From a virus: a DNA stretch of 27,719 bases. Position 1 is the stretch's first letter. The number at the start of each line of letters is the position of its first letter. The stretch spans positions 1 to 27,719 of the IMG/VR virus record IMGVR_UViG_3300023192_000576; one strand, 5' to 3'. The translations under genes and the position numbers were made by a program. The notes under the pieces were generated by a model. The model did no database searches and was not told the DNA's origin. It saw nothing but the letters and a program-made list of their open reading frames with translations. Shown piece after piece: positions 13,738 to 23,963 of this stretch.

Positions 13738-13806
13738 ATGTTGGAAGGGGGCAGACCCGAACTCGCCGGGATGTCCCCGACCTTCACCAATAGAGAAAGG
13801 AATTGC

Positions 13807-14700
13807 ATGACTGTCGAAGATGATACCATTACCGGAGACATACGAACGACAGCGGTCCCTGTACCGCTAAAAATTGAATCGAAGTGCATCTACGATGAAG
13901 AGCAACTGATAAAACAGATCGCAGGAAATCTGGAAAAGTACGAATCGCAGTTTCCCTCCTTCCAAGGCGCATACGTCCACAACGATGGCAATGCGGTACT
14001 GGTTGGATGTGGCCCCTCCATCGAGTCGGAGGAAGTAAAGAAATCGATACGAGGGCAGTGGCAGAAGGGCCGTCCTATATTTGCAATCAAGGGAGCGCAC
14101 GATTGGCTCATTCAGGAGATGTCCATCATCCCGGATTTATGTGTGTTCCTTGACCCGCAGGACCATATGATAGACCGGATACAGCTTGCAGGGCAGTGGC
14201 CCTATACGCATCGGGGCGTGGTGTATCTTTTAGCCAGCCAGTGTTCCCCGAAGATGTTTGAATTACTAAAGAAGTATAAGGTTGTAATGTGGCACGCCTT
14301 GTCGAATGTGGGGGAGAAGAAACTCCTAAAGGGTAGGCTCATGGTGGGGGGAGGTACGACATCAGGACTGCGGACCTTTAACCTTGCCTACCTGATGGGT
14401 TTTAAGCGGTTCCACCTGTACGGGTTCGACAGTTGCAACAAGGATGAGAATTCAAAGTACAAGCGGGTGAACATCCACACGGGCGGCGACCATGCGGTGA
14501 AGGTGATCAAGGTCCACAGTAATGGTAAGGACCACTGGTGCAACCCGGCGATGGCAGGACAGGCCAACGAGTTTCAGGATATGATAAAAATGTTTGGCGG
14601 TGATATACGAATCAAAGTCTACGGGGACGGGTTAATCTCCTCCCTGATGGAAGAGCGCAAGAAGAACGGTATTGTTGATTGGAACGAAGGTGAAGAATGA
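13807..14700 (+). CDS. DUF115/MptE-like Rossmann protein (putative sugar transferase)
   Basis: ATG 13807 is chosen for the AGAAAGGA (13793-13800); the upstream in-frame ATG 13738 has no ribosome site. The 297-aa product has the MptE/DUF115 pattern: AVLVGCGPSI (63-72, nucleotide-binding loop), IFAIKGAHDWLIQ (91-103), PDLCVFLDPQD (109-119), YLLASQCSPKMFELL, and GGGTTSGLRTFNLAY, with LYGFDSC after it. Family members act as pterin pyrophosphokinase-like enzymes or in flagellin glycosylation (Maf). It is translationally coupled (ATGA) to the following glycosyltransferase, so a sugar-modifying role is inferred; substrate is unknown. Confidence 0.7.
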   Translation: MTVEDDTITGDIRTTAVPVPLKIESKCIYDEEQLIKQIAGNLEKYESQFPSFQGAYVHNDGNAVLVGCGPSIESEEVKKSIRGQWQKGRPIFAIKGAHDWLIQEMSIIPDLCVFLDPQDHMIDRIQLAGQWPYTHRGVVYLLASQCSPKMFELLKKYKVVMWHALSNVGEKKLLKGRLMVGGGTTSGLRTFNLAYLMGFKRFHLYGFDSCNKDENSKYKRVNIHTGGDHAVKVIKVHSNGKDHWCNPAMAGQANEFQDMIKMFGGDIRIKVYGDGLISSLMEERKKNGIVDWNEGEE

Positions 14701-15755
14701 GAGTCTCCTTTGTAGGCTCGGCAATGTTCATGCACGCATCGTATCGGTACAGGACCCTGATGCCAGCCAGAGCGTTGCAGGAGGCCAAGGTTGAATGTGC
14801 CATTGTAACTTCCTACGATGGCCTTAACGCTGATGTTTTCGTGTTCAGCAAGCACTGGACCCCGGACAAGGACCGGGCCGCTATAGAGCAAATAAAAACT
14901 CCGGGGTTCATGGCTGGAAACCAGATAGCGGTTGTGGCGGAGGACCGCCCTGATCCAAAGGTGGTGTTCGATGTCTGTGACGATCACTTCGACCACCCGC
15001 AGTTGGGGGATCATTACCGCTGGATGTGTACCCACGCCGATCTGGTTGTTGCCAGTACCGACAGGATGAGAAAGATCATACTGGGAAAAGTGGTATGGAA
15101 CGCCCCTCCTCCTGAAGTCGTTGTCATCAACGATGCCTACGAGTTCCCGGAGCTTGCGCCCCGGCACAGGTGGGAGCAATGGACCCCAGAGAATGTTCTC
15201 TGGTACGGACACCCGACAAACTTTGAACACTTGCACCGGGTATGGAACCAACTCAAGGGTTATAACCTGATGGTCATAACGAACGGCATCGAGCTTACCG
15301 ACACGGTAGCCGGTAAGGATTTCCCGGTTGTACCGTGGAACCACGAGAACATGATGGACGGCTTCAAGCAGTCAGACATCGTTGTCATTCCTACCGGGGA
15401 TGAGGGATACAAGAGTCACAAGGGGGCAAACCGGATGCTCGAGGCAATCAGACAAGGGGTCTTCGTTGTGGCGGAACCACACCCTGAATATAATAAGTTC
15501 AAGGAATGGATGTACATCGGTGACATCGGAAAGGGATTGGCATGGGTTCAATCAAACAAGAAGTATATAAAGGGAAGGATCGAGTCGGCACAAAAATTCG
15601 TATCATCCAACTACCACCCGCAGATTATCGGGAAGAAGTGGATCAAGGCATTAAGCTCCATTTGGGGAGCGGAATCCAACGATGGAGCGGATGGACCAAC
15701 ATCGATGGCTTCGGTGGAGGCGGAACAAACCGCCACGATATCACCGGGGATATAA
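14697..15755 (+). CDS. glycosyltransferase, GT4-like (352 aa)
   Basis: It begins in the ATGA overlap with the DUF115-like gene. The N-terminus (MRVSFVGSAMFMHASYRYRT, about 1-20) has the first strand and a R-YR segment of GT-B transferases, followed by YRTLMPARALQ. The second half has the donor-binding region: SDIVVIPTGDEGYKSHKGAN (about 228-247) and RMLEAIRQGVFVVAEPHPEY (248-267), which correspond to the conserved E-x7-E region of GT4. It lacks a transmembrane anchor. The last natural-looking helix ends near IGKKWIKALSSIWG (about 319-332); the remaining 20 residues are low-complexity and overlap the methyltransferase. Family sure at fold level, sugar and acceptor unknown. Confidence 0.75.
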   Translation: MRVSFVGSAMFMHASYRYRTLMPARALQEAKVECAIVTSYDGLNADVFVFSKHWTPDKDRAAIEQIKTPGFMAGNQIAVVAEDRPDPKVVFDVCDDHFDHPQLGDHYRWMCTHADLVVASTDRMRKIILGKVVWNAPPPEVVVINDAYEFPELAPRHRWEQWTPENVLWYGHPTNFEHLHRVWNQLKGYNLMVITNGIELTDTVAGKDFPVVPWNHENMMDGFKQSDIVVIPTGDEGYKSHKGANRMLEAIRQGVFVVAEPHPEYNKFKEWMYIGDIGKGLAWVQSNKKYIKGRIESAQKFVSSNYHPQIIGKKWIKALSSIWGAESNDGADGPTSMASVEAEQTATISPGI

Positions 15756-16144
15756 CCAAACTTGAGGGGTACGAGAAGGATAGCGTGGAACAGATCGCAC
15801 TCGTTCATGTCTTCGAGCATCTTTACGTTTGGGAGGGCCGTGAGGCGATAAAGCGATGGTACGAGATATTACAGCCGGGAGGCAGGCTGGTCATCGAGGT
15901 CCCGTGTATCAACAAGATACTTGACCTCTTTGCCAAGGGAGAGAGGGACCCTTCTCTAACATATTATGGATTGTACGGGGAGCAAACATTTGGAGAAAAA
16001 GAGATGAATCATAAGTGGTGCTACTCGTACAACCAACTCAAGTCGGTGTTCAGAGAGGCTGGATTCAAGAAGGAAAACATAATTGTAACAGACCCGGTAT
16101 ACCACAAGGTGATACGGGATATGCGTGTGGTCGGGATCAAGTGA
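15542..16144 (+). CDS. class I SAM methyltransferase (Methyltransf_11-like)
   Basis: Motif I KLHLGSG (38-44), WTNIDG (51-56, acidic residue D55) and LVHVFEHL (about 87-94) followed by a YEILQPGGRLVIEVP (about 107-121) give a small-molecule or glycan type methyltransferase. From ATG 15542 the gene overlaps the glycosyltransferase by 214 nt in the -1 frame. The conserved part begins only at about residue 36, so GTG 15641 (MDQGIKLHLGSG) is an equally good start; either way overlap remains at least 115 nt. Possible roles: O-methylating a sugar made by the neighbours. In the overlap an A_AAG_GGA heptamer (15569-15575) is in the glycosyltransferase frame. Confidence 0.7.
   Translation: MGSIKQEVYKGKDRVGTKIRIIQLPPADYREEVDQGIKLHLGSGIQRWSGWTNIDGFGGGGTNRHDITGDITKLEGYEKDSVEQIALVHVFEHLYVWEGREAIKRWYEILQPGGRLVIEVPCINKILDLFAKGERDPSLTYYGLYGEQTFGEKEMNHKWCYSYNQLKSVFREAGFKKENIIVTDPVYHKVIRDMRVVGIK
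15569..15575 (+). promoter_or_regulatory. candidate -1 frameshift heptamer (A_AAG_GGA)
   Basis: The heptamer AAAGGGA is read as ATA-AAG-GGA in the glycosyltransferase frame, so it fits X_XXY_YYZ with a -1 slip into TAT-AAA-GGG of the methyltransferase frame. A slip would yield a fusion lacking the glycosyltransferase C-terminal helix. Pattern only; no stimulatory structure was verified and one such heptamer in a 214-nt overlap can be chance. Confidence 0.25.
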
Positions 16145-16171
16145 TGATAGACGAAAAAAGGAGACAATAAT

Positions 16172-16828
16172 ATGCCACGTTATTCAGGGGAGTCAGGAAG
16201 TTCACAGGTTATCCGTCCGGGATGGGGGCAGGACCCGTGGGGGGTCAGGATGCAGGAAGAAGAAGTAAAAGCCTTGCAGGCAAAGATGATGATGCTTGGT
16301 AGGCGGCTGGGGAAGAAAGGCGGAGAGGGGGTTGAATCAGAAGAAATCGATATGGATGAATTAATGGAAAGCGACCCTGACTTTGCCGAGTTTGAACCGG
16401 ATATAGAAGACGGTGCAATGCAGGAAACATCCCTAGCCGCAAGCGGAATGGAGGAGCAGGACCCGTTCTTTGGGGATGAAGGTGGAGCGGAGGAAATGTA
16501 CCCCGGCGGGGACGAGTTTGAATCAAGGGCGATGGATTTTGGAACAGATGACCCAAGGGTAAATGAAGAGAAGGCGGCACAATTGGCGGCGATGCAATTG
16601 GCAACCGGGAACCGACTCGGACAGGGTCCACGGGGAGAATACGAAATAGCACAATCACGGGCGCAGTTCGATCCACTGCAACAGACAGGACAGTATGCAG
16701 GCACGGGTCTGGCTCCAAGGCCTCCATCTCCAGAGCAGATAGCGATGGCGCAGTTTGATGAACAAAACCGTTACCGCCGAAGGATGGGAGGTATCGGTGG
16801 TGGCGGCAGTAGGTATCGGGGGTACTGA
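16172..16828 (+). CDS. acidic low-complexity protein (218 aa)
   Basis: AAGGAG (16158-16163) and an A/T-rich spacer give a strong start at ATG 16172. The product has a methionine-rich helix (EEEVKALQAKMMMLGRRLGK, 29-48), a long very acidic stretch (about 55-110, runs of E/D with FEPDIEDGAMQE and DPFFGDEGG), a mid-helix (EEKAAQLAAMQLATGNRLGQ) and a Gly/Arg-rich end. It looks disordered. It stands between the methyltransferase and the GT8-like gene and its stop overlaps the next ATG (TGATG). The role is unknown; an acceptor or chaperone role is speculative. Confidence 0.6.
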   Translation: MPRYSGESGSSQVIRPGWGQDPWGVRMQEEEVKALQAKMMMLGRRLGKKGGEGVESEEIDMDELMESDPDFAEFEPDIEDGAMQETSLAASGMEEQDPFFGDEGGAEEMYPGGDEFESRAMDFGTDDPRVNEEKAAQLAAMQLATGNRLGQGPRGEYEIAQSRAQFDPLQQTGQYAGTGLAPRPPSPEQIAMAQFDEQNRYRRRMGGIGGGGSRYRGY

Positions 16829-17574
16829 TGTTAAGGATTTTCATCGGTTATGACAGCAAGGAAATTGTCGCCTACCATACCTGCGTGCAGTCGATCATCG
16901 ACCATGCCACACAGCCGGTAGCGATCACCCCGGTCTGCCTCACCCACATGACGGAATATAGAAAGCCCCGGCACTCTACGCAAAGCACGGAGTTTTCGAT
17001 GTCCCGGTTTATGGTCCCATACCTGTGCGACTACCAAGGCACGGCTATCTTCGTGGACTGCGACACCATCTTTCGGGCTGACCCGGCGGAGCTTATGATG
17101 TTCGCCCATGAGGGGAGCTACCCGCAAAAGGCCGTGTATGTGGTCCATCATGACTACACCCCTAATAGCAAGGTAAAATTCCTCGACCAGATACAGACCA
17201 CATACGAAAAGAAAAACTGGTCCAGCGTTGTGGTCTTTAATAACTGGAAGTGCAAGAAATTATCCCCGAAATATATCAACAAGGCTACAGGATTGGAACT
17301 GCATCAGTTCAAATGGCTGGACAGTGACGATGATATAGGTGCGCTCCCAGTAGAGTGGAATCATCTTGTCGGGGAATACCTTGAACACCCGACAGCGAAC
17401 TTAGTCCACTTCACGCAGGGTACGCCGTGCTTCAGCGGATGGGAGAATCAGGAACATTCGGATGAATGGTTTGATGTAATGAAGAGAGCAATGAGTTCAA
17501 AAGAGTCAACGATAAAACTAATCACGAGGGAGATAAAATCCGACCCGGCACTGCAATACGGTGGCGAGTGGTAG
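16828..17574 (+). CDS. glycosyltransferase, GT8-like (248 aa)
   Basis: The product begins MLRIFIGYDSKEIVAYHTCV (1-20), a GT-A-type first strand, continues with FSMSRFMVPYLCDYQ (56-70) and has the metal-binding DxD motif in FVDCDTIF (D77-C78-D79). VVVFNNWKC (about 134-142) is at the position of the GT8 V-x-x-N segment. This is the pattern of GT8-like transferases using nucleotide sugars with Mn2+ or Mg2+. No signal or membrane segment: cytosolic. It closes the sugar-modification block. Acceptor may be a virion protein or cell glycan (inference). Confidence 0.78.
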   Translation: MLRIFIGYDSKEIVAYHTCVQSIIDHATQPVAITPVCLTHMTEYRKPRHSTQSTEFSMSRFMVPYLCDYQGTAIFVDCDTIFRADPAELMMFAHEGSYPQKAVYVVHHDYTPNSKVKFLDQIQTTYEKKNWSSVVVFNNWKCKKLSPKYINKATGLELHQFKWLDSDDDIGALPVEWNHLVGEYLEHPTANLVHFTQGTPCFSGWENQEHSDEWFDVMKRAMSSKESTIKLITREIKSDPALQYGGEW

Positions 17575-17590: not shown

Positions 17591-18283
17591 ATGCCAGCGA
17601 ATCAAGAACTGTTAGCCGGTCTAAGAGAGAGGCCGAGAGAAACCTGTCACGTTTCTTTTGAGCTTCGCCCCTTCAAGGATGCGGACGCATCGAAGGAGGC
17701 AGGCCATGTAATTTATAGGGACGTTGAGTATGCGGTACTCACCCCTCCGGGTGGGCAGTTGGTGGTGAACAAGGAGGTCACCCCGCTACTGATCGAACGC
17801 TTCAGGCCGCAGTACGAGGCTTGGAAACGGGACGAGGAGTTACCAGAAAACGGCACGCACGTTAAGATGTGGCCCGTGATCACCCCGGCTGAAATCAAGC
17901 AATGCATGAACGCACAGGTTAGAACCATCGAGGCTGTGAGCGAAATGAACGAGTCCTGTATCAAGCAGGTGGGTATGGGGGGACGGGCATTAAAAGACAA
18001 GGCTATTGCATGGCTGGAAAGTGCTAAACTAAGTGGGATAACTGCCGAGCGGTTGCAGGCACTGAAGGTGGATAATGATGACCTTCGGACGCAAAACGAG
18101 CAACTAAATGCCCGGAACGAAGAACTAAAACTCCAGCTTACGAAGGAACGCCGGGAGAACAAGACAATCGACATCGGTGATCTTCAAGACGAGAATTCTG
18201 CGCTTAAGTTGGAGAACGCAGAGCTTCACGGGAAAATTAAATCCGCACCCAAAAGAAAGGCGGCTAAAAAGAGGAAAAGATAA
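17591..18283 (+). CDS. phage protein with C-terminal coiled coil (230 aa)
   Basis: ATG 17591 is chosen for AAAGGA (17575-17580), 10 nt upstream; a GTG at 17561 lies inside the preceding gene and has no site. The N-terminal half is beta-rich (CHVSFELRPFKDAD), with a phage-typical LIERFRPQYEAWKRD (67-81), then MWPVITPAEIKQCMNAQVRTIEAV (about 93-116), a helix-hairpin-like motif found in many phage head genes. The C-terminal third (about 150-215) is a leucine/asparagine coiled coil, ending in a basic KRKAAKKRKR. No enzymatic motif. It probably serves in head completion or assembly (inference). Its stop overlaps the adaptor start (TAATG). Confidence 0.7.
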   Translation: MPANQELLAGLRERPRETCHVSFELRPFKDADASKEAGHVIYRDVEYAVLTPPGGQLVVNKEVTPLLIERFRPQYEAWKRDEELPENGTHVKMWPVITPAEIKQCMNAQVRTIEAVSEMNESCIKQVGMGGRALKDKAIAWLESAKLSGITAERLQALKVDNDDLRTQNEQLNARNEELKLQLTKERRENKTIDIGDLQDENSALKLENAELHGKIKSAPKRKAAKKRKR

Positions 18284-19032
18284 TGTCATTGCTAACGCTT
18301 GTTGCAGACACCTATGAGGTCCTTGGTATCGGCGGGACAACACCCACCCTAGTTAGAGCGGGGGGAATTGTAAGTACGGAGGTTGCGGTCAGGCAGTTGT
18401 TCCGACTCGCCAACATTGAGGGCAACGCCCTGAATAGGCGATTCCGGTTTGAGCGGATGGTGGAAGAGGTAGTCTTTACCGTTTCTGCAACATCCAACCA
18501 CGGCTCCATCGCCTCCATCACATCGGTCACCGCCGCATCTGTTACCGGGATGTCTACCGGATTCGACTACATTCTCAACGATACAATTTGGAACAGGACC
18601 CTGCAACGCCCGGTATTCGGCCCCCTGAACCCCTCGCACAGGGCGGGTTTGAAGGCTTCTGCCGTTACAGGCCCCTACGCAGAATATTTCATCCGTGGTG
18701 GGGATCTGCATACCATACCCGCCACCACCACAGCATCCTATGCCTTCGAGTACAAATCAAAATTCTGGTGCGAGAATAGCACCGGACAGGGCCAGCCCTT
18801 TTGGCTTGCCGATTCGGATGTAGGCAGGCTGGATGAGTACGTCATGGGCCTCGGCCTGATCTGGCGGTGGAAGCAGTCCAAGGGGTTCGACTACGCCGAA
18901 GATTTCGCAACCTATGAGCGTGAGGTGGTCAACTACATGGCCCGTGACGGTGGCAAGCTGACTGTCAATATGTCTGGAGATGGCGACTACCGCCCCTTTA
19001 TCAACGTGCCTAGCGGATCATGGAACCTGTAA
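18283..19032 (+). CDS. head-tail adaptor / tail accessory factor-like protein
   Basis: The 249-aa product starts in a TAATG overlap. A helical N-terminal region (about 28-65) is followed by a beta region with TSVTAAS and NDTIWNRTLQRPVFGPL, then YAFEYKSKFWCEN and a C-terminal LDEYVMGLGLIWRWKQSKGF...AEDFATYEREVVNYMARDGG. This RWKQxKG...D-x-x-TYE pattern recurs in podovirus-type adaptor genes downstream of capsid genes. It would sit under the portal and link the tail. The call is by family pattern and gene order. It overlaps the next gene by 13 nt. Confidence 0.65.
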   Translation: MSLLTLVADTYEVLGIGGTTPTLVRAGGIVSTEVAVRQLFRLANIEGNALNRRFRFERMVEEVVFTVSATSNHGSIASITSVTAASVTGMSTGFDYILNDTIWNRTLQRPVFGPLNPSHRAGLKASAVTGPYAEYFIRGGDLHTIPATTTASYAFEYKSKFWCENSTGQGQPFWLADSDVGRLDEYVMGLGLIWRWKQSKGFDYAEDFATYEREVVNYMARDGGKLTVNMSGDGDYRPFINVPSGSWNL

Positions 19033-21290
19033 CAAATTATAACAAGACCCTCGGACAGCTTCTATACGGCCCGATTAAGAGGGGAATAGTAGACCCTGTC
19101 GCAAACCTTTTTAATCAAAGGGCGGCTGATACAGGCCGTCAGTTGAGCCAAGATGAAGTGTTCTCTCCCAACTGGCCCAAGTCAAGGGAGGAGATGAAGA
19201 GGCCGGGGATATATTTGCAGGACCCCGGATCAGAACAAGGGCAGGCGATGGAAGCGGGGTTGGGGCTGGCTGACGTTGCCGACATAGGGATGCTGGGCCT
19301 TGGTGTGAGGGGTGTAAAACAAGGGGCGGAGCTTGTTGGTGGTCAATTAAAGAAATGGGTTCCGCAAAAATGGATGTCGGGTAAACGGGAAGGACGCTAC
19401 CGTGGGGGACCAAATTGGGTTGACTCCCCGTACAACCTAAAGAAAATGAAAGGGATTGGTCAGGCCCTCGCAACAGAAGGGGCGGCGGGTAGATACTGGT
19501 ACGAGGACACTGGTAAACAGATTATAAAATACATGGGCGGAAACGTAAATGATGCGGAAGACTTCGTAAAGTTTCTTGCCGTAACTTCTTCGCAGACAGG
19601 GGTGCAAGCAAACCTCACCCACGCAATGAGAATGTATTCTCACTTCAAATCACTTAAAGCTGGCAAGGACACTATCTCTCCCTTGGTAAGGGCTGGGCGG
19701 TTCCCTGTCAGGATGTATGACGAATATTTAAAGCTGGTCAGTGGCGATAAACAATTTATAGATACGATCAAGCGTGGGTCCTTTTATAAAAACCTGATGA
19801 CAGAAATTGATCCAAGCAGGTTCGGCAAGGATGCGGATGTCACAGTGGATATGTGGATGATGAGGGCGTTGGGGTACGATACAGATGTCCCCGGTATGTC
19901 ATCGAAGGACAAGTCGGCGCAGTATGACTTTGTCAGAAATCATGTACGGGACGTAGCCAAGAATCTTGGATGGGAAGCGCATCAGGTGCAGGCGGCGATG
20001 TGGACAAGCATAAAGGCCCGGTCAGAGTCGAAGGTTGTTAAAGACCTGACAAAAACGATGGCGAAGAAGAGAGGCATTATAAAAAACGGCGAGGTAGTGA
20101 ACATGGATGCCTATAATGACCTCCTCTATAAGAACGCCATGAAGCACGAGCCGTCTGTTGGAGAAATAAAAAATGCGGCGAAGCATTATGGTGACTTCTT
20201 GAAGACCCATCACGCATTTTCCTCTACGGAATATATACCGTCCATAAATTCTGGAATACTACCAGAGCTTCACAAGGCCCCCTACCAAGTAAAGGTCCAG
20301 TTCACATACGATATGCAACGGGCCATGTCCCCTGAAGGGGTGGATGAGATAGCAAGCTACCTCGGCATACCCTCGCCGGGAGGGGGTTTGGCAGGCCCTT
20401 CGGGTCACTACGTTGAGACTGTTGGTGGAAAAGAAATAGCCTATAACTATCCGACAGTACAAAAGACAGTCACAGCACCGCTCCAAAGGGGGACTAATCT
20501 AGGCGTACAAATACCAACCGGGACATTTAGAGAAACAGTAAACAAAAAAGGTGAGGTGGTAAGAAAGGCGGTGATGAAAACAATCCAGCATGGCAGGGTT
20601 GAACCTTCTGCGGCAAGGCAGATGGATCAATACGCCGCCATGTATGGAGAGATTGCGAATCAGGATAGCCTTGGATGGTACAGGCTTATAGACGGGACCA
20701 CTGTAGAAGCATCCAGTGCCCTGCATATAAAGACAGGGCAATCGCTACAACCAAGTGAGGTGAAGGAGATAATGAGTCACTTGGAAAAAGACCCGTACCT
20801 AAATCAAAATGTATGGACCGCGCCCTCCCCGGACGGGGACGGGATATATGTGTTTCATATAAGAGGATACGAGGGGGGTAAGGTTGACCCACTGCCACCC
20901 GGAATCGAAGGCCCGACACGCACTGTCTTTGACCATACTGAGTTTGTGAGGCGTGTTGGCAAGGCCGCAGGAAAAAGTTCGCAAAAAAAATTAAAGATTG
21001 ATAGAATGGGTCACGATGGTAATTTAATAGGGGGTCCGCATGGCAAAGATAGAATGGGGTTATTACAAGAGTTCAGAAACGATCCAAAATTTAAGCGAAT
21101 TTCGGATAGCCTCACCGAGCGTGCTAGGGGAGTCTACCAGAAGTACGCCAAAAAACACGGATGGAACCCAAGCACCATCCCCGGATATAGCCAGCCGCAA
21201 CGACCTCCGAGCTTTGGCACTACGCCTGCAACGGCAGTAGCCACAGGCGCACGCCTTACACAACCACAGAATCTAGGGGGGCCACCATGA
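19020..21290 (+). CDS. large polyvalent/ejection-type protein with DUF7178-like region (756 aa)
   Basis: ATG 19020 lies within the last codons of the adaptor gene. Residues about 155-335 carry a motif set I associate with DUF7178-like modules in phage virion proteins: FLAVTSSQTGVQANLTHAMR (185-204), SFYKNLM (254-260), DVTVDMWMMRALGYD (273-287) and a C-terminal NHVRDVAKNLGWEAHQVQAA (about 307-326). The region resembles helix-hairpin DNA-glycosylase-like proteins, but I see no unambiguous catalytic residue. The C-terminal 400 residues are unassigned. It may be an injected virion protein, or a host-modifying one (inference). It ends in ...GGPP with a stop shared with the ART gene. Confidence 0.6.
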   Translation: MEPVTNYNKTLGQLLYGPIKRGIVDPVANLFNQRAADTGRQLSQDEVFSPNWPKSREEMKRPGIYLQDPGSEQGQAMEAGLGLADVADIGMLGLGVRGVKQGAELVGGQLKKWVPQKWMSGKREGRYRGGPNWVDSPYNLKKMKGIGQALATEGAAGRYWYEDTGKQIIKYMGGNVNDAEDFVKFLAVTSSQTGVQANLTHAMRMYSHFKSLKAGKDTISPLVRAGRFPVRMYDEYLKLVSGDKQFIDTIKRGSFYKNLMTEIDPSRFGKDADVTVDMWMMRALGYDTDVPGMSSKDKSAQYDFVRNHVRDVAKNLGWEAHQVQAAMWTSIKARSESKVVKDLTKTMAKKRGIIKNGEVVNMDAYNDLLYKNAMKHEPSVGEIKNAAKHYGDFLKTHHAFSSTEYIPSINSGILPELHKAPYQVKVQFTYDMQRAMSPEGVDEIASYLGIPSPGGGLAGPSGHYVETVGGKEIAYNYPTVQKTVTAPLQRGTNLGVQIPTGTFRETVNKKGEVVRKAVMKTIQHGRVEPSAARQMDQYAAMYGEIANQDSLGWYRLIDGTTVEASSALHIKTGQSLQPSEVKEIMSHLEKDPYLNQNVWTAPSPDGDGIYVFHIRGYEGGKVDPLPPGIEGPTRTVFDHTEFVRRVGKAAGKSSQKKLKIDRMGHDGNLIGGPHGKDRMGLLQEFRNDPKFKRISDSLTERARGVYQKYAKKHGWNPSTIPGYSQPQRPPSFGTTPATAVATGARLTQPQNLGGPP

Positions 21291-21294
21291 CCCC
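21278..21294 (+). repeat. 17-bp direct repeat, copy 1 (start of ART gene)
   Basis: GGGGCCACCATGACCCC spans the stop of the 756-aa gene and the ATGA start of the ADP-ribosyltransferase gene. The same 17 bases occur at 22294-22310 over the ART stop. The flanking base on each side differs. Confidence 0.85.
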
Positions 21295-22306
21295 CTACCA
21301 AATCAAGAAACAATACGATCTCGGAAGACGATTACAACAGAACGATCAGGGCCTGATCCGCCAAGAACCGTCCGGGTGGCAACGTGCCGTATCCAAGGGG
21401 AAGCGTTTGTTCTACGGTGACCAAGACCCGAGAAAGAAGAGCGTGTTCGACTCGAAGTTCATCCCGATGAAAGGTGCGCCTGCGAAATACGAAGGTGTGG
21501 GAATGGATATGGTTATGCCAGCAATAACAGCTTTTCACGCTTCACCACATAGGTTCAGCAAGTTTGATACGTCCAAGATAGGTACGGGAGAAGGCGCACA
21601 GGCTTATGGGCATGGGTTGTATTTTGCGGAGAACCCAGAGGTTGCCGGGGAGTATGCAAAAAGTTTTAAAAGACACGTTATTGACCCAAGAACCGGTGAG
21701 GCAATACGACCAAGATACCCTGCGGGAATTTATGCTTCTGAAATATTATCAGAATTTGGTGGAAGTTACGAAAAAGCGAAGAAGGTAATCAATCTGCGTG
21801 GTGGAACGCTACAACACCAAGAGAATGCTATTGAGGTTTTAAATAATTGGGAAAGAAATGGTATTAAACTTAGTCCCGCTCACACCTACAAAGTTGACAT
21901 CCCTGACGACCAGATAGCCAAGATGCTTGATTGGGATAAGCCTTTGAGTGGGCAATCCACACACATCAAATCATCTTTGAAAAAAATATTTAATAAGCAT
22001 TTGCGTAGCGGGGAAGATTTGGGTGATTACACACATTACGGCAGATGGGATGATGTGTTAGTGCAAGACCCCACTATTGAGTATATGATGCGTTCCGTTT
22101 TTCCAAATGTCGGCTTGGGAGCAAAACACGGCGGTGGGGCATCAAAGACTGCCGAGGTATTACTCAACGAGGGGGGAATCCCCGGCATCAAGTACCTTGA
22201 CCAAGGGTCGAGGCGGGGTGGTAAAGGCACATCAAACTTTGTCGTGTTCGATGAGCAGATACCGCAGATATTAGCGATTAACGATAAACCAATGGGGCCA
22301 CCATGA
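21287..22306 (+). CDS. ADP-ribosyltransferase, ART-PolyVal-like (339 aa)
   Basis: The N-terminal 80 residues are a basic leader. From about 81 on the sequence fits the ART-PolyVal domain: AFHASPHRFSKFDTSKIGTG (82-101, with candidate catalytic H84), GEGAQAYGHGLYFAENPEVA (101-120, candidate Tyr Y112), the KVDIPDDQIAKMLDWDKPLS segment (202-221), and a C-terminal GIPGIKYLDQGSR (297-309) with TSNFVVFDE (315-323). H-Y-[E/D] is the usual ART triad; D322 or E323 may be the third residue. Known role: transfer ADP-ribose from NAD+ to a target. In phages such domains are often fused into large virion proteins; here it is stand-alone. Likely injected host-takeover enzyme (inference). Confidence 0.82.
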   Translation: MTPYQIKKQYDLGRRLQQNDQGLIRQEPSGWQRAVSKGKRLFYGDQDPRKKSVFDSKFIPMKGAPAKYEGVGMDMVMPAITAFHASPHRFSKFDTSKIGTGEGAQAYGHGLYFAENPEVAGEYAKSFKRHVIDPRTGEAIRPRYPAGIYASEILSEFGGSYEKAKKVINLRGGTLQHQENAIEVLNNWERNGIKLSPAHTYKVDIPDDQIAKMLDWDKPLSGQSTHIKSSLKKIFNKHLRSGEDLGDYTHYGRWDDVLVQDPTIEYMMRSVFPNVGLGAKHGGGASKTAEVLLNEGGIPGIKYLDQGSRRGGKGTSNFVVFDEQIPQILAINDKPMGPP

Positions 22307-22310
22307 CCCC
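22294..22310 (+). repeat. 17-bp direct repeat, copy 2 (end of ART gene)
   Basis: Exact second copy of GGGGCCACCATGACCCC. It covers the ART stop codon and recreates an ATGA start, which opens an eight-codon frame (22303-22326, MTPERDA) that is a dead end. Recombination between the two copies would delete the ART gene and leave the 756-aa gene intact. Confidence 0.85.
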
Positions 22311-22327
22311 TGAACGTGACGCGTAGA

Positions 22328-22432
22328 ATGAGGTATACTAAGAAGCAGAGGAGAGAGGCTTTTCCTTACAGTACGCTTGATGTTGATAAAGGTGATTTAG
22401 TTTATAGTTACGGCAAGGCACTTATGAAATGA
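22328..22432 (+). CDS. small basic ORF (34 aa)
   Basis: ATG 22328, two bases after the stop of the MTPERDA mini-frame, encodes a 34-aa basic peptide starting MRYTKKQRREAFPY. It ends in an ATGA overlap with an ATG at 22429 that would begin the hub gene. No ribosome site is obvious. The conserved-looking ATGA junction supports reality, small size and the neighbouring broken frame argue for caution. Confidence 0.35.
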   Translation: MRYTKKQRREAFPYSTLDVDKGDLVYSYGKALMK

Positions 22433-22493
22433 GAAGACCACAAAGACCTAACCCACAACGACAGCCACTGGCGGGCTTAACGCCCGTGAATCC
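22429..22493 (+). other. probable N-terminal part of the tail hub gene, out of frame
   Basis: ATG 22429 (ATGA overlap with the 34-aa frame) opens a basic, proline-rich segment (MRRPQRPNPQRQPL) in frame 1, while the hub gene itself is open in frame 0 from 22452 and reads GGLNARESVSNMPE at 22470-22511. That motif is typical of the N-terminus of this family and normally follows a proline-rich start. One missing base near 22466-22470 would join the two. A CGGGC/GCCCG hairpin (72-76/82-86 of the 22400s) lies just downstream. Confidence 0.55.
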
Positions 22494-23963
22494 GTGTCAA
22501 ATATGCCAGAAACTGACTGCCTCGAAGCTCTAAATGTTATCTGTGATACCGATGCGATCCGCATCCGACCCGGTCACAAAGTCCACGCCTCTGCGCTAAA
22601 CGGGAATGTGGAATCACTTATGGAATGGAACGGTCCCGGCACACCCGCCAAACTTATTGCGGCCTGCGCCAGTTCAAATTCTGTATTTGAAGTGACCACA
22701 GCAACCGCCGCAGTCAGTGCCATAGCTGGTTCCGGGCTTAACAGCGCACGCTGGAATCACACCATTTTTGGCAACGGAGCAGGAACAAACTTTCTGGTCA
22801 TGGTAAACGATTCGGCAAGCGATGACGTTTATAATTATGACGGCACTACTTTCACCACACCATCTATAACAGGTAATGGGCTGGACCCGAAAAAACTGGT
22901 TCATGTCATGGAGCATAAGGAGCGGCTATTCTTTACCGAAGCCTCCTCAACCTCTGTGTGGTATCTCCCGGTATTTTCCATCGGAGGGGTAGCCGCAGAG
23001 TTCGATTTTGGCTCACAGTTCAACCTCGGAGGGACTGTAAGTAGTTGTTTTACTTGGACATTGGACGCTGGGAATGGAATGGATGACTTATTCTGTGTGT
23101 GGAGTACGAAGGGAGAAATAATTGTGTACTCGGGAAGCAACCCAGATTCTGCGTCAGATTGGTCCAAATCTGGGTCGTTCAGAATAGGTGCCCCGATTGG
23201 GCGAAAAAATTATTTTCAAGTTGGATCGGATGTCATTCTCCTGACTCAAGACGGCTTCGTGCCGATCTCTAAGGCCCTGCTATCGGGCAGGACAATGCTA
23301 CAGGAAGCCATCTCTGACAAGATCAGGGACACCATTCGAGTGATCACCGCTACGGCTAAATCCCGCTTTGGCTGGCAACCTATTTTGTGGCCTAAACGTG
23401 GACTTGGGCTTTTCAATGTTCCTGTTAAGGCAGAGGGTTCCGGGCAACAGCAGTTCGTGATCAACACCCTGAACCTTAGCTGGTCCCAGTGGACAGGATT
23501 GGAGGCGAACTGCTGGTCCCTCCTGAACGATGACCTTTATTATGGCGGGAAAAACACGGTCTACGAATTTGGATCAACAGCGGCAAGCGTGGGGAACACC
23601 ATAATGGCGGATGTCCAGCCTGCTTTTTCCTACATGGGGGATCGCACCGGGCTGAAACAGTTTCACATGGTACGCCCCACGATCTTAAGCTCCGCCAGCG
23701 TAAACCCTGTTCTTGTAATGAACGTGGACTTTGAGAATATTTTCCCACAGACGACCCCGACAATCTCGTTCTCGGGCGGGGATTGGGACGATACCTTTTG
23801 GGACACCACGTTATGGGCAGGATCGGTAACGAAAAAAACAGAGTGGATTGGGGTGACAGGTGTCGGATTTGCGGGTACACTAAGGTGGAGAGCGGTAACG
23901 GATGAGTCAGAGGTTGCTTGGCACGCAACAGACTACCTGTTCTCGACAGGAGAGTTTATGTGA
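22494..23963 (+). CDS. tail nozzle/hub-like protein (489 aa from GTG)
   Basis: The best open start is GTG 22494, but the family motif GGLNARES lies just upstream in the same frame, so this start truncates the protein (see separate entry). The sequence runs SNMPETDCLEALNVICDTD, RIRPGHKVHA, then repeated strand modules (KLIAACASSNSVFEVTTATA, HMEHKERLFFTEASS-like, GEIIVYSGSNPDSASDW, SWSQWTGLEANCWSL), ending in TDYLFSTGEFM. The pattern of repeated four-stranded blades is that of podovirus tail nozzle or P22 gp10-like stabilisation proteins. It would close the tail knob. Call by fold pattern and position. Confidence 0.6.
   Translation: MSNMPETDCLEALNVICDTDAIRIRPGHKVHASALNGNVESLMEWNGPGTPAKLIAACASSNSVFEVTTATAAVSAIAGSGLNSARWNHTIFGNGAGTNFLVMVNDSASDDVYNYDGTTFTTPSITGNGLDPKKLVHVMEHKERLFFTEASSTSVWYLPVFSIGGVAAEFDFGSQFNLGGTVSSCFTWTLDAGNGMDDLFCVWSTKGEIIVYSGSNPDSASDWSKSGSFRIGAPIGRKNYFQVGSDVILLTQDGFVPISKALLSGRTMLQEAISDKIRDTIRVITATAKSRFGWQPILWPKRGLGLFNVPVKAEGSGQQQFVINTLNLSWSQWTGLEANCWSLLNDDLYYGGKNTVYEFGSTAASVGNTIMADVQPAFSYMGDRTGLKQFHMVRPTILSSASVNPVLVMNVDFENIFPQTTPTISFSGGDWDDTFWDTTLWAGSVTKKTEWIGVTGVGFAGTLRWRAVTDESEVAWHATDYLFSTGEFM

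What the first reader, a model, noticed from the sequence alone, without database searches (positions are those of the whole stretch)
21278..22310. Stand-alone ADP-ribosyltransferase gene bounded by an exact 17-bp direct repeat
The ART-PolyVal-like gene (21287-22306) starts and ends in identical sequence (GGGGCCACCATGACCCC at 21278-21294 and 22294-22310). Each copy holds an ATGA start-stop. Deletion by recombination between the copies would remove the gene without harming its neighbour, and the second copy creates a useless start (MTPERDA). This suggests a swappable cargo cassette or a duplication during gain. ARTs are usually fused into large virion proteins, so a separate gene next to the 756-aa protein hints at a split polyvalent protein or an injected effector.
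Basis: partly seen in the sequence, partly recalled or inferred. Interest (0 to 1): 0.68.

Follow-up and report, generated by a model that had tools for sequence, protein, structure and literature searches.

The report
Repeat-flanked phage ADP-ribosyltransferase cargo gene
A short-tailed phage carries a probable ADP-ribosyltransferase enzyme as a separate gene beside another 'injected effector' module, in a spot between two tail genes where related phages park varied accessory genes; the exact 17-base repeat around it is real and unusual, but nothing shows that it makes the gene a removable cassette.

Summary
Observation confirmed: GGGGCCACCATGACCCC occurs exactly at 21278-21294 and 22294-22310, at both ends of ORF 21287-22306. 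Of 802 distinct genes tested, only this one has a boundary repeat of 17 bp or more. The ORF belongs to a large, mostly stand-alone phage family related to ART-PolyVal: weak direct Pfam hit, but a homologue passes the cut-off and the model matches ART-PolyVal proteins in BFVD. H84 and Y112 are invariant; the acid position appears to be an invariant Asn317.

The upstream 756-aa protein is a DUF7178 module that in 31 of 33 other contigs lies in ORFs of 915-3305 aa; three of these also contain ART-PolyVal. 'Split polyvalent protein' is well supported. The pair sits between tail-tubular-A and gp10-like genes, which abut in 52 of 59 relatives and enclose other cargo in seven; a separate phage group has an ART there.

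The excision-cassette idea is not supported: relatives' ART genes lack boundary repeats, ART cores moved with breakpoints inside the gene, and no single-copy empty site was found. No same-species contig covers the locus, so it is not excluded. Most likely the repeat is an insertion scar or doubled start-stop junction.

The parts
18283..19032 (+). tail-tubular-A-like gene, left border of the cargo slot
   Evidence: phrog_6013 tail protein E=8e-32; abuts the gp10-like gene in 52 of 59 relatives
19020..21290 (+). 756-aa protein with DUF7178 core (about 19464-20018), solo version of a polyvalent-protein module
   Evidence: PF23802 E=8e-11; relatives lie in ORFs of 915-3305 aa; with ART-PolyVal in one ORF in L130, L144, L159
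21274..21297 (+). predicted hairpin (stems 21274-21280 and 21291-21297) with the stop-start ATGA in its loop; possible translational coupling site
   Evidence: -12.8 kcal/mol, z=-2.0; prediction only
21278..21294 (+). repeat copy 1; holds the 756-aa gene's stop and the ART start
   Evidence: exact match
21287..22306 (+). 339-aa ART-PolyVal-like gene; ART domain about residues 80-335 (21524-22291); H84 at 21536-21538, Y112 at 21620-21622, N317 at 22235-22237
22294..22310 (+). repeat copy 2; holds the ART stop and the start of MTPERDA
   Evidence: exact match
22303..22326 (+). 7-codon ORF MTPERDA opened by copy 2; no evidence that it is used
   Evidence: sequence
22429..23963 (+). gp10-like tail gene, right border of the slot; main frame opens at 22494, the conserved N-terminus begins in another frame at 22429
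   Evidence: phrog_5107 E=8e-96; N-termini of relatives compared

Best explanation
The gene encodes a stand-alone, ART-PolyVal-like ADP-ribosyltransferase. With the upstream gene, whose stop overlaps its start (a solo DUF7178 polyvalent module), it forms a two-gene, split counterpart of a polyvalent effector protein. The pair is accessory cargo in a slot between the tail-tubular-A-like and gp10-like tail genes. Because it lies among late virion genes, the proteins are most likely made late, packaged and delivered with the DNA to modify host targets early in the next infection, in the manner of T4 Alt. Shown: family, neighbour module, slot, repeat. Inferred: catalysis, packaging, delivery and target. 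The 17-bp repeat is most likely a scar of how the ART reading frame was joined to the 756-aa gene (an insertion or template switch that doubled the start-stop junction); copy 1 now serves as an ATGA stop-start junction, perhaps inside a hairpin. It is not a demonstrated excision site.
For: Family: 28 of 29 aligned members hit ART-PolyVal, L014 above cut-off; BFVD fold matches to ART-PolyVal proteins down to E=2.6e-14; H84 and Y112 invariant. Split polyvalent: 31 of 33 other DUF7178 contigs have it in ORFs of 915-3305 aa and L130, L144, L159 hold both domains. Slot: 52 of 59 relatives empty, 7 with other inserts; an ART but no 756-aa gene in the L004 group, not one clade with the window ART (AU p=0.004). 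Late virion setting: family members beside portal, terminase, virion structural or endolysin genes, as published for phage ARTs (PMC9503650). Repeat private to this locus.
Against: Direct Pfam score is below the cut-off; the model is of middling confidence (pLDDT 67) and no PDB fold match is significant. Asn at the presumed acid position could mean altered or lost catalysis. No packaging data were available. The window is the only genome seen with this gene pair. The scar reading rests on absence of alternatives.
Confidence: 0.6

Rival explanations
1. The repeat is an active exchange boundary: recombination between the two copies deletes or swaps the ART gene and leaves the 756-aa gene intact.
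For: Exact repeat exactly at the gene's ends; ART has the lowest GC3 of the genes measured; the surrounding slot is variable between phages.
Against: None of 42 related ART genes has such a repeat; no repeat copy in a related phage context; ART cores moved with breakpoints inside the gene; 17 bp is short for homologous recombination (general knowledge); no relative carries the 756-aa gene without ART.
Confidence: 0.12
2. The repeat is functional rather than historical: the same stop-start (ATGA) coupling sequence with its hairpin is used at both gene ends for translation of the next reading frame.
For: Copy 1 overlaps stop and start and is predicted to fold with the ATG in the loop (z=-2.0); overlapping starts are common in this late cluster.
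Against: Copy 2 shows no excess stability (z=+0.4) and opens only a 7-codon ORF; no other junction in the window uses the sequence; related ART genes do not share it.
Confidence: 0.15
3. The repeat is a chance match helped by both genes ending in -GPP-stop and overlapping an ATG.
For: A longer 19-bp repeat without evident meaning exists in the same window; a portal gene in L106 has a 16-bp boundary repeat.
Against: 1 of 802 genes; about 0.007 expected per window at this spacing; both copies lie exactly on start and stop codons.
Confidence: 0.13

Closest known systems
ART-PolyVal (PF18760; placed with the Tox-ART-HYD2 clade, Iyer et al. 2017, PMC5512222)
   Same: H and Y motifs, start of the domain, fold match in BFVD, phage late-gene setting
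   Different: mostly stand-alone; larger insert between the motifs; published H-Y-D acid appears to be an invariant Asn here; direct Pfam score below cut-off
Stand-alone phage ARTs of the same family, e.g. phiGT1_5 (QLB38217.1) of Sulfitobacter phage phiGT1 and uncultured Caudovirales proteins in BFVD
   Same: Same family (34% identity to phiGT1_5), similar size, beside head or tail genes
   Different: phiGT1_5 lies near the portal and scaffold genes, without a DUF7178 neighbour and without a boundary repeat in the sequences tested
Large polyvalent proteins with DUF7178 and ART-PolyVal (L130, L144, L159)
   Same: Contain both modules; DUF7178 before ART in L144 and L159
   Different: One long ORF of 1816-2884 aa (L159 cut) rather than two overlapping genes; their ART domain is of the typical ART-PolyVal type
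T4 Alt
   Same: Proposed mode of action: ART packaged and injected with the DNA (what it works like)
   Different: Alt belongs to the R-S-E Alt/VIP2 clade (PMC5512222); this protein has H and Y, so it is not a member

Membership tests
ART-PolyVal (PF18760) | Profile score over the curated cut-off | tested here: inconclusive
   Window protein 21.8 bits against 31.2; homologue L014 37.1 bits, aligned with the window over residues 13-329 at 36%
ART-PolyVal (PF18760) | Conserved H in strand 1 and Y in strand 2 | tested here: met
   H84 (strand 80-86) and Y112 (strand 111-114) invariant in 29 members
ART-PolyVal (PF18760) | Aspartate in strand 5 | tested here: inconclusive
   Start of the last motif strand (317-320) is an invariant Asn317; D305 is also invariant but lies in a low-confidence loop
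ART-PolyVal (PF18760) | ART fold | tested here: met
   BFVD proteins named ART-PolyVal matched at E down to 2.6e-14; PDB search not significant
Polyvalent protein | Several effector domains in one polypeptide | tested here: not met
   Two separate overlapping genes, one recognised domain each; a split counterpart, not a member
Alt/VIP2 clade | R-S-E active site | tested here: not met
   H84 and Y112 occupy the motif positions
Virion-packaged, injected effector | Protein present in virions and delivered to the host | not testable with these tools
   Only genomic position supports it; phiGT1 virion mass spectrometry exists (Table S3 of PMC10386132) but supplements could not be opened
Repeat-bounded exchangeable cassette | Empty site with one repeat copy, or boundary repeats around the same cargo elsewhere | tested here: not met
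   No boundary repeats in 42 related ART genes; no repeat copy in related phages; empty-slot relatives lack both genes. Same species could not be tested

The most novel reading that the evidence does not exclude
The tail-A/gp10 interval is a general cargo slot in this podovirus family, where polyvalent effectors occur taken apart into coupled single genes. The doubled start-stop junction around ART would be a captured intermediate of effector-by-effector assembly, carrying an ART whose catalytic acid is replaced by Asn and which may do different NAD chemistry.
Probability: 0.2. Interest if true: 0.6.

Novelty: new variant of a known kind. Interest (0 to 1): 0.38.

Why it matters
If right, it gives a concrete locus for watching how phages shuffle probable injected effectors: one slot between two tail genes that holds ARTs, a DUF7178 module, HNH endonucleases or a pectate-lyase-like protein in different phages, and a case where two modules that elsewhere share one polypeptide are encoded separately. 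It also flags a large stand-alone ART family (252 confirmed stretches in IMG/VR) with an unusual invariant Asn that is open to simple biochemistry.

Tried and rejected
gp10-like protein as a single-sequence probe in IMG/VR found no relatives; an alignment of major capsid proteins was used instead. Near-identical contigs L092 and L093 and the 91%-capsid relative L162 stop before the locus, so presence/absence within the species is untested. Genome-contig scan with the DUF7178 alignment: no relatives. PDB by sequence and by fold for ART: nothing significant; RES, exotoxin A and pertussis S1 folds appear only at E>1. Shared N-terminal leader between the 756-aa protein and the ART family: not detected. 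34-aa ORF after ART: no convincing match. Tandem duplication of ART as the source of copy 2: no similarity beyond 17 bp. Mobile 17-mer: three exact hits in IMG/VR, about as many as chance would give in a collection of that size by my estimate, none with ART or tail genes of this phage beside it. Inserts in the slot of other phages: no repeat between the slot's two borders, 6-8 nt at most. Profile comparison of the ART family with one fused ART-PolyVal domain: only the first motif aligned.

Full report
Observation. GGGGCCACCATGACCCC is present exactly twice, at 21278-21294 and 22294-22310, at the two ends of the ORF 21287-22306. The ATG of the ORF is in copy 1 and its TGA in copy 2. An order-3 Markov model of the window gives 0.007 repeats of this length at this spacing. 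Over 802 distinct genes from the window and fetched loci, only this gene has a boundary repeat of 17 bp or more; a portal gene in related locus L106 has one of 16 bp. The window also holds a 19-bp exact repeat between the inside of ART and the lysis region. The repeat is real and rare, but length alone does not prove function.

The gene. Pfam ART-PolyVal is hit weakly (E=3.5e-4, below cut-off). The protein has many relatives in IMG/VR: 252 stretches were confirmed and the best 80, at 33-43% identity, kept. Most are stand-alone ORFs of about 300-430 aa. In an alignment of 29, H84, Y112, D305, S308, R309 and N317 are invariant; 28 of 29 hit ART-PolyVal, L014 above the curated cut-off. The AlphaFold model (pLDDT 67) matches BFVD models named ART-PolyVal-like or PolyVal ADP-ribosyltransferase, at E down to 2.6e-14, although no PDB match is significant. 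The published active site of the family is H-Y-D (PMC5512222). Here the strand 317-320 starts with an invariant Asn where, by motif, the acid is expected; the fused ART-PolyVal domain of L062 has Glu in the comparable motif. This rests on motif reading and is a hypothesis.

The neighbour. The 756-aa protein holds DUF7178. The two scans for it cover 33 distinct contigs; in 31 the match lies in an ORF of 915-3305 aa, several of them cut by contig ends. The exceptions are L157 (511 aa, cut by the contig end) and L160 (176 aa, a weak short match). L130, L144 and L159 carry DUF7178 and ART-PolyVal in one ORF, both above cut-off, with DUF7178 first in L144 and L159; L128 has a partial ART match at the cut end of its ORF. 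None of 46 other ART contigs tested has DUF7178. The window is the only case seen with the two modules as adjacent separate genes.

The slot. The pair lies between a tail-tubular-A-like gene and a gp10-like gene. In the annotated phages MW202489, phiGT1, EBPR podovirus 2 and ppBjS10J-1 these genes abut or nearly so. Of 59 IMG/VR relatives found through the capsid protein that hold both genes, 52 have at most 260 nt between them and 7 have inserts of 0.5-2 kb: two HNH endonucleases, one pectate-lyase-like protein and four proteins without a Pfam match. The L004 group has an ART in the same slot and no 756-aa gene. A tree that holds that group and the window's ART together is rejected (AU p=0.004; the window is on a long branch, so this is moderate evidence). 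ART has the lowest GC3 of the genes measured and the 756-aa gene is near the bottom. I read this as a cargo slot filled more than once.

What the repeat means. ART cores do move: 98 contig pairs, many from near-identical contigs, share ART DNA but little or no flanking DNA, for example the L004 group and L069 at 91% over 475 nt. The shared stretch starts and ends inside the gene, and none of 42 related ART genes has a boundary repeat. So mobility in this family does not use such repeats. Copy 1 could fold into a hairpin with the stop-start in its loop (z=-2.0); copy 2 shows no excess stability. An insertion or template-switch scar fits best; translational coupling, chance and an active exchange boundary follow with similar, low weight. 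The direct test needs genomes of the same species: L092 and L093 (near-identical) and L162 (capsid 91%) stop short of the locus.

Function. ART genes of this family sit beside portal, terminase, virion structural or endolysin genes. This matches the published view that phage ARTs encoded near head genes are packaged and injected (PMC9503650). Packaging, target and catalysis of this protein are inferred, not shown. Stand-alone phage ARTs near head genes are already described, so the novelty lies in the split DUF7178-plus-ART pair, the tail-gene slot and the apparent Asn in the active site.

Noticed in passing
22429-22533 and 22494-23963: The conserved N-terminus of the gp10-like tail protein (MRRPQRPNPQRQP...) starts at 22429 in a different frame from the main ORF; the frames change at about 22465-22470, upstream of the annotated GTG start. 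Either an assembly error or a broken or shifted gene.
   Followed up: partly
2436-2454 and 21794-21812: An exact 19-bp direct repeat links the inside of the ART gene with an unrelated, probably spanin-like lysis-region sequence, in different frames; elsewhere in IMG/VR it occurs only in the near-identical contigs L092 and L093.
   Followed up: partly
19464-20018 (DUF7178 core of the 756-aa protein): Top PDB fold matches are 8-oxoguanine DNA glycosylases (HhH type), not significant (E=0.27, probability 0.85); K251 and D277 are invariant, as a Lys/Asp pair would be in such enzymes. DUF7178 may be a glycosylase-like domain of polyvalent proteins.
   Followed up: partly
L106:10028-12139: The portal gene of a related phage is bounded by a 16-bp direct repeat (ATCCCTGCCTCTTTCG), so near-equal boundary repeats occur around essential genes too.
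   Followed up: no
L127:1838-1854: The same 17-mer, with the same loop, sits in a longer hairpin downstream of a capsid-like gene on the other strand in a phage contig with only a distant capsid match (27% identity) to the window.
   Followed up: no
13738-17574: A block of glycosyltransferase-like genes lies between capsid and tail genes; it is shared with L162 (capsid 91%) but not found in most other relatives looked at.
   Followed up: no
L232:16509-17726 and 18849-19514: Another relative has an ART gene just upstream of the tail-tubular-A gene and an HNH endonuclease in the tail-A/gp10 slot.
   Followed up: no
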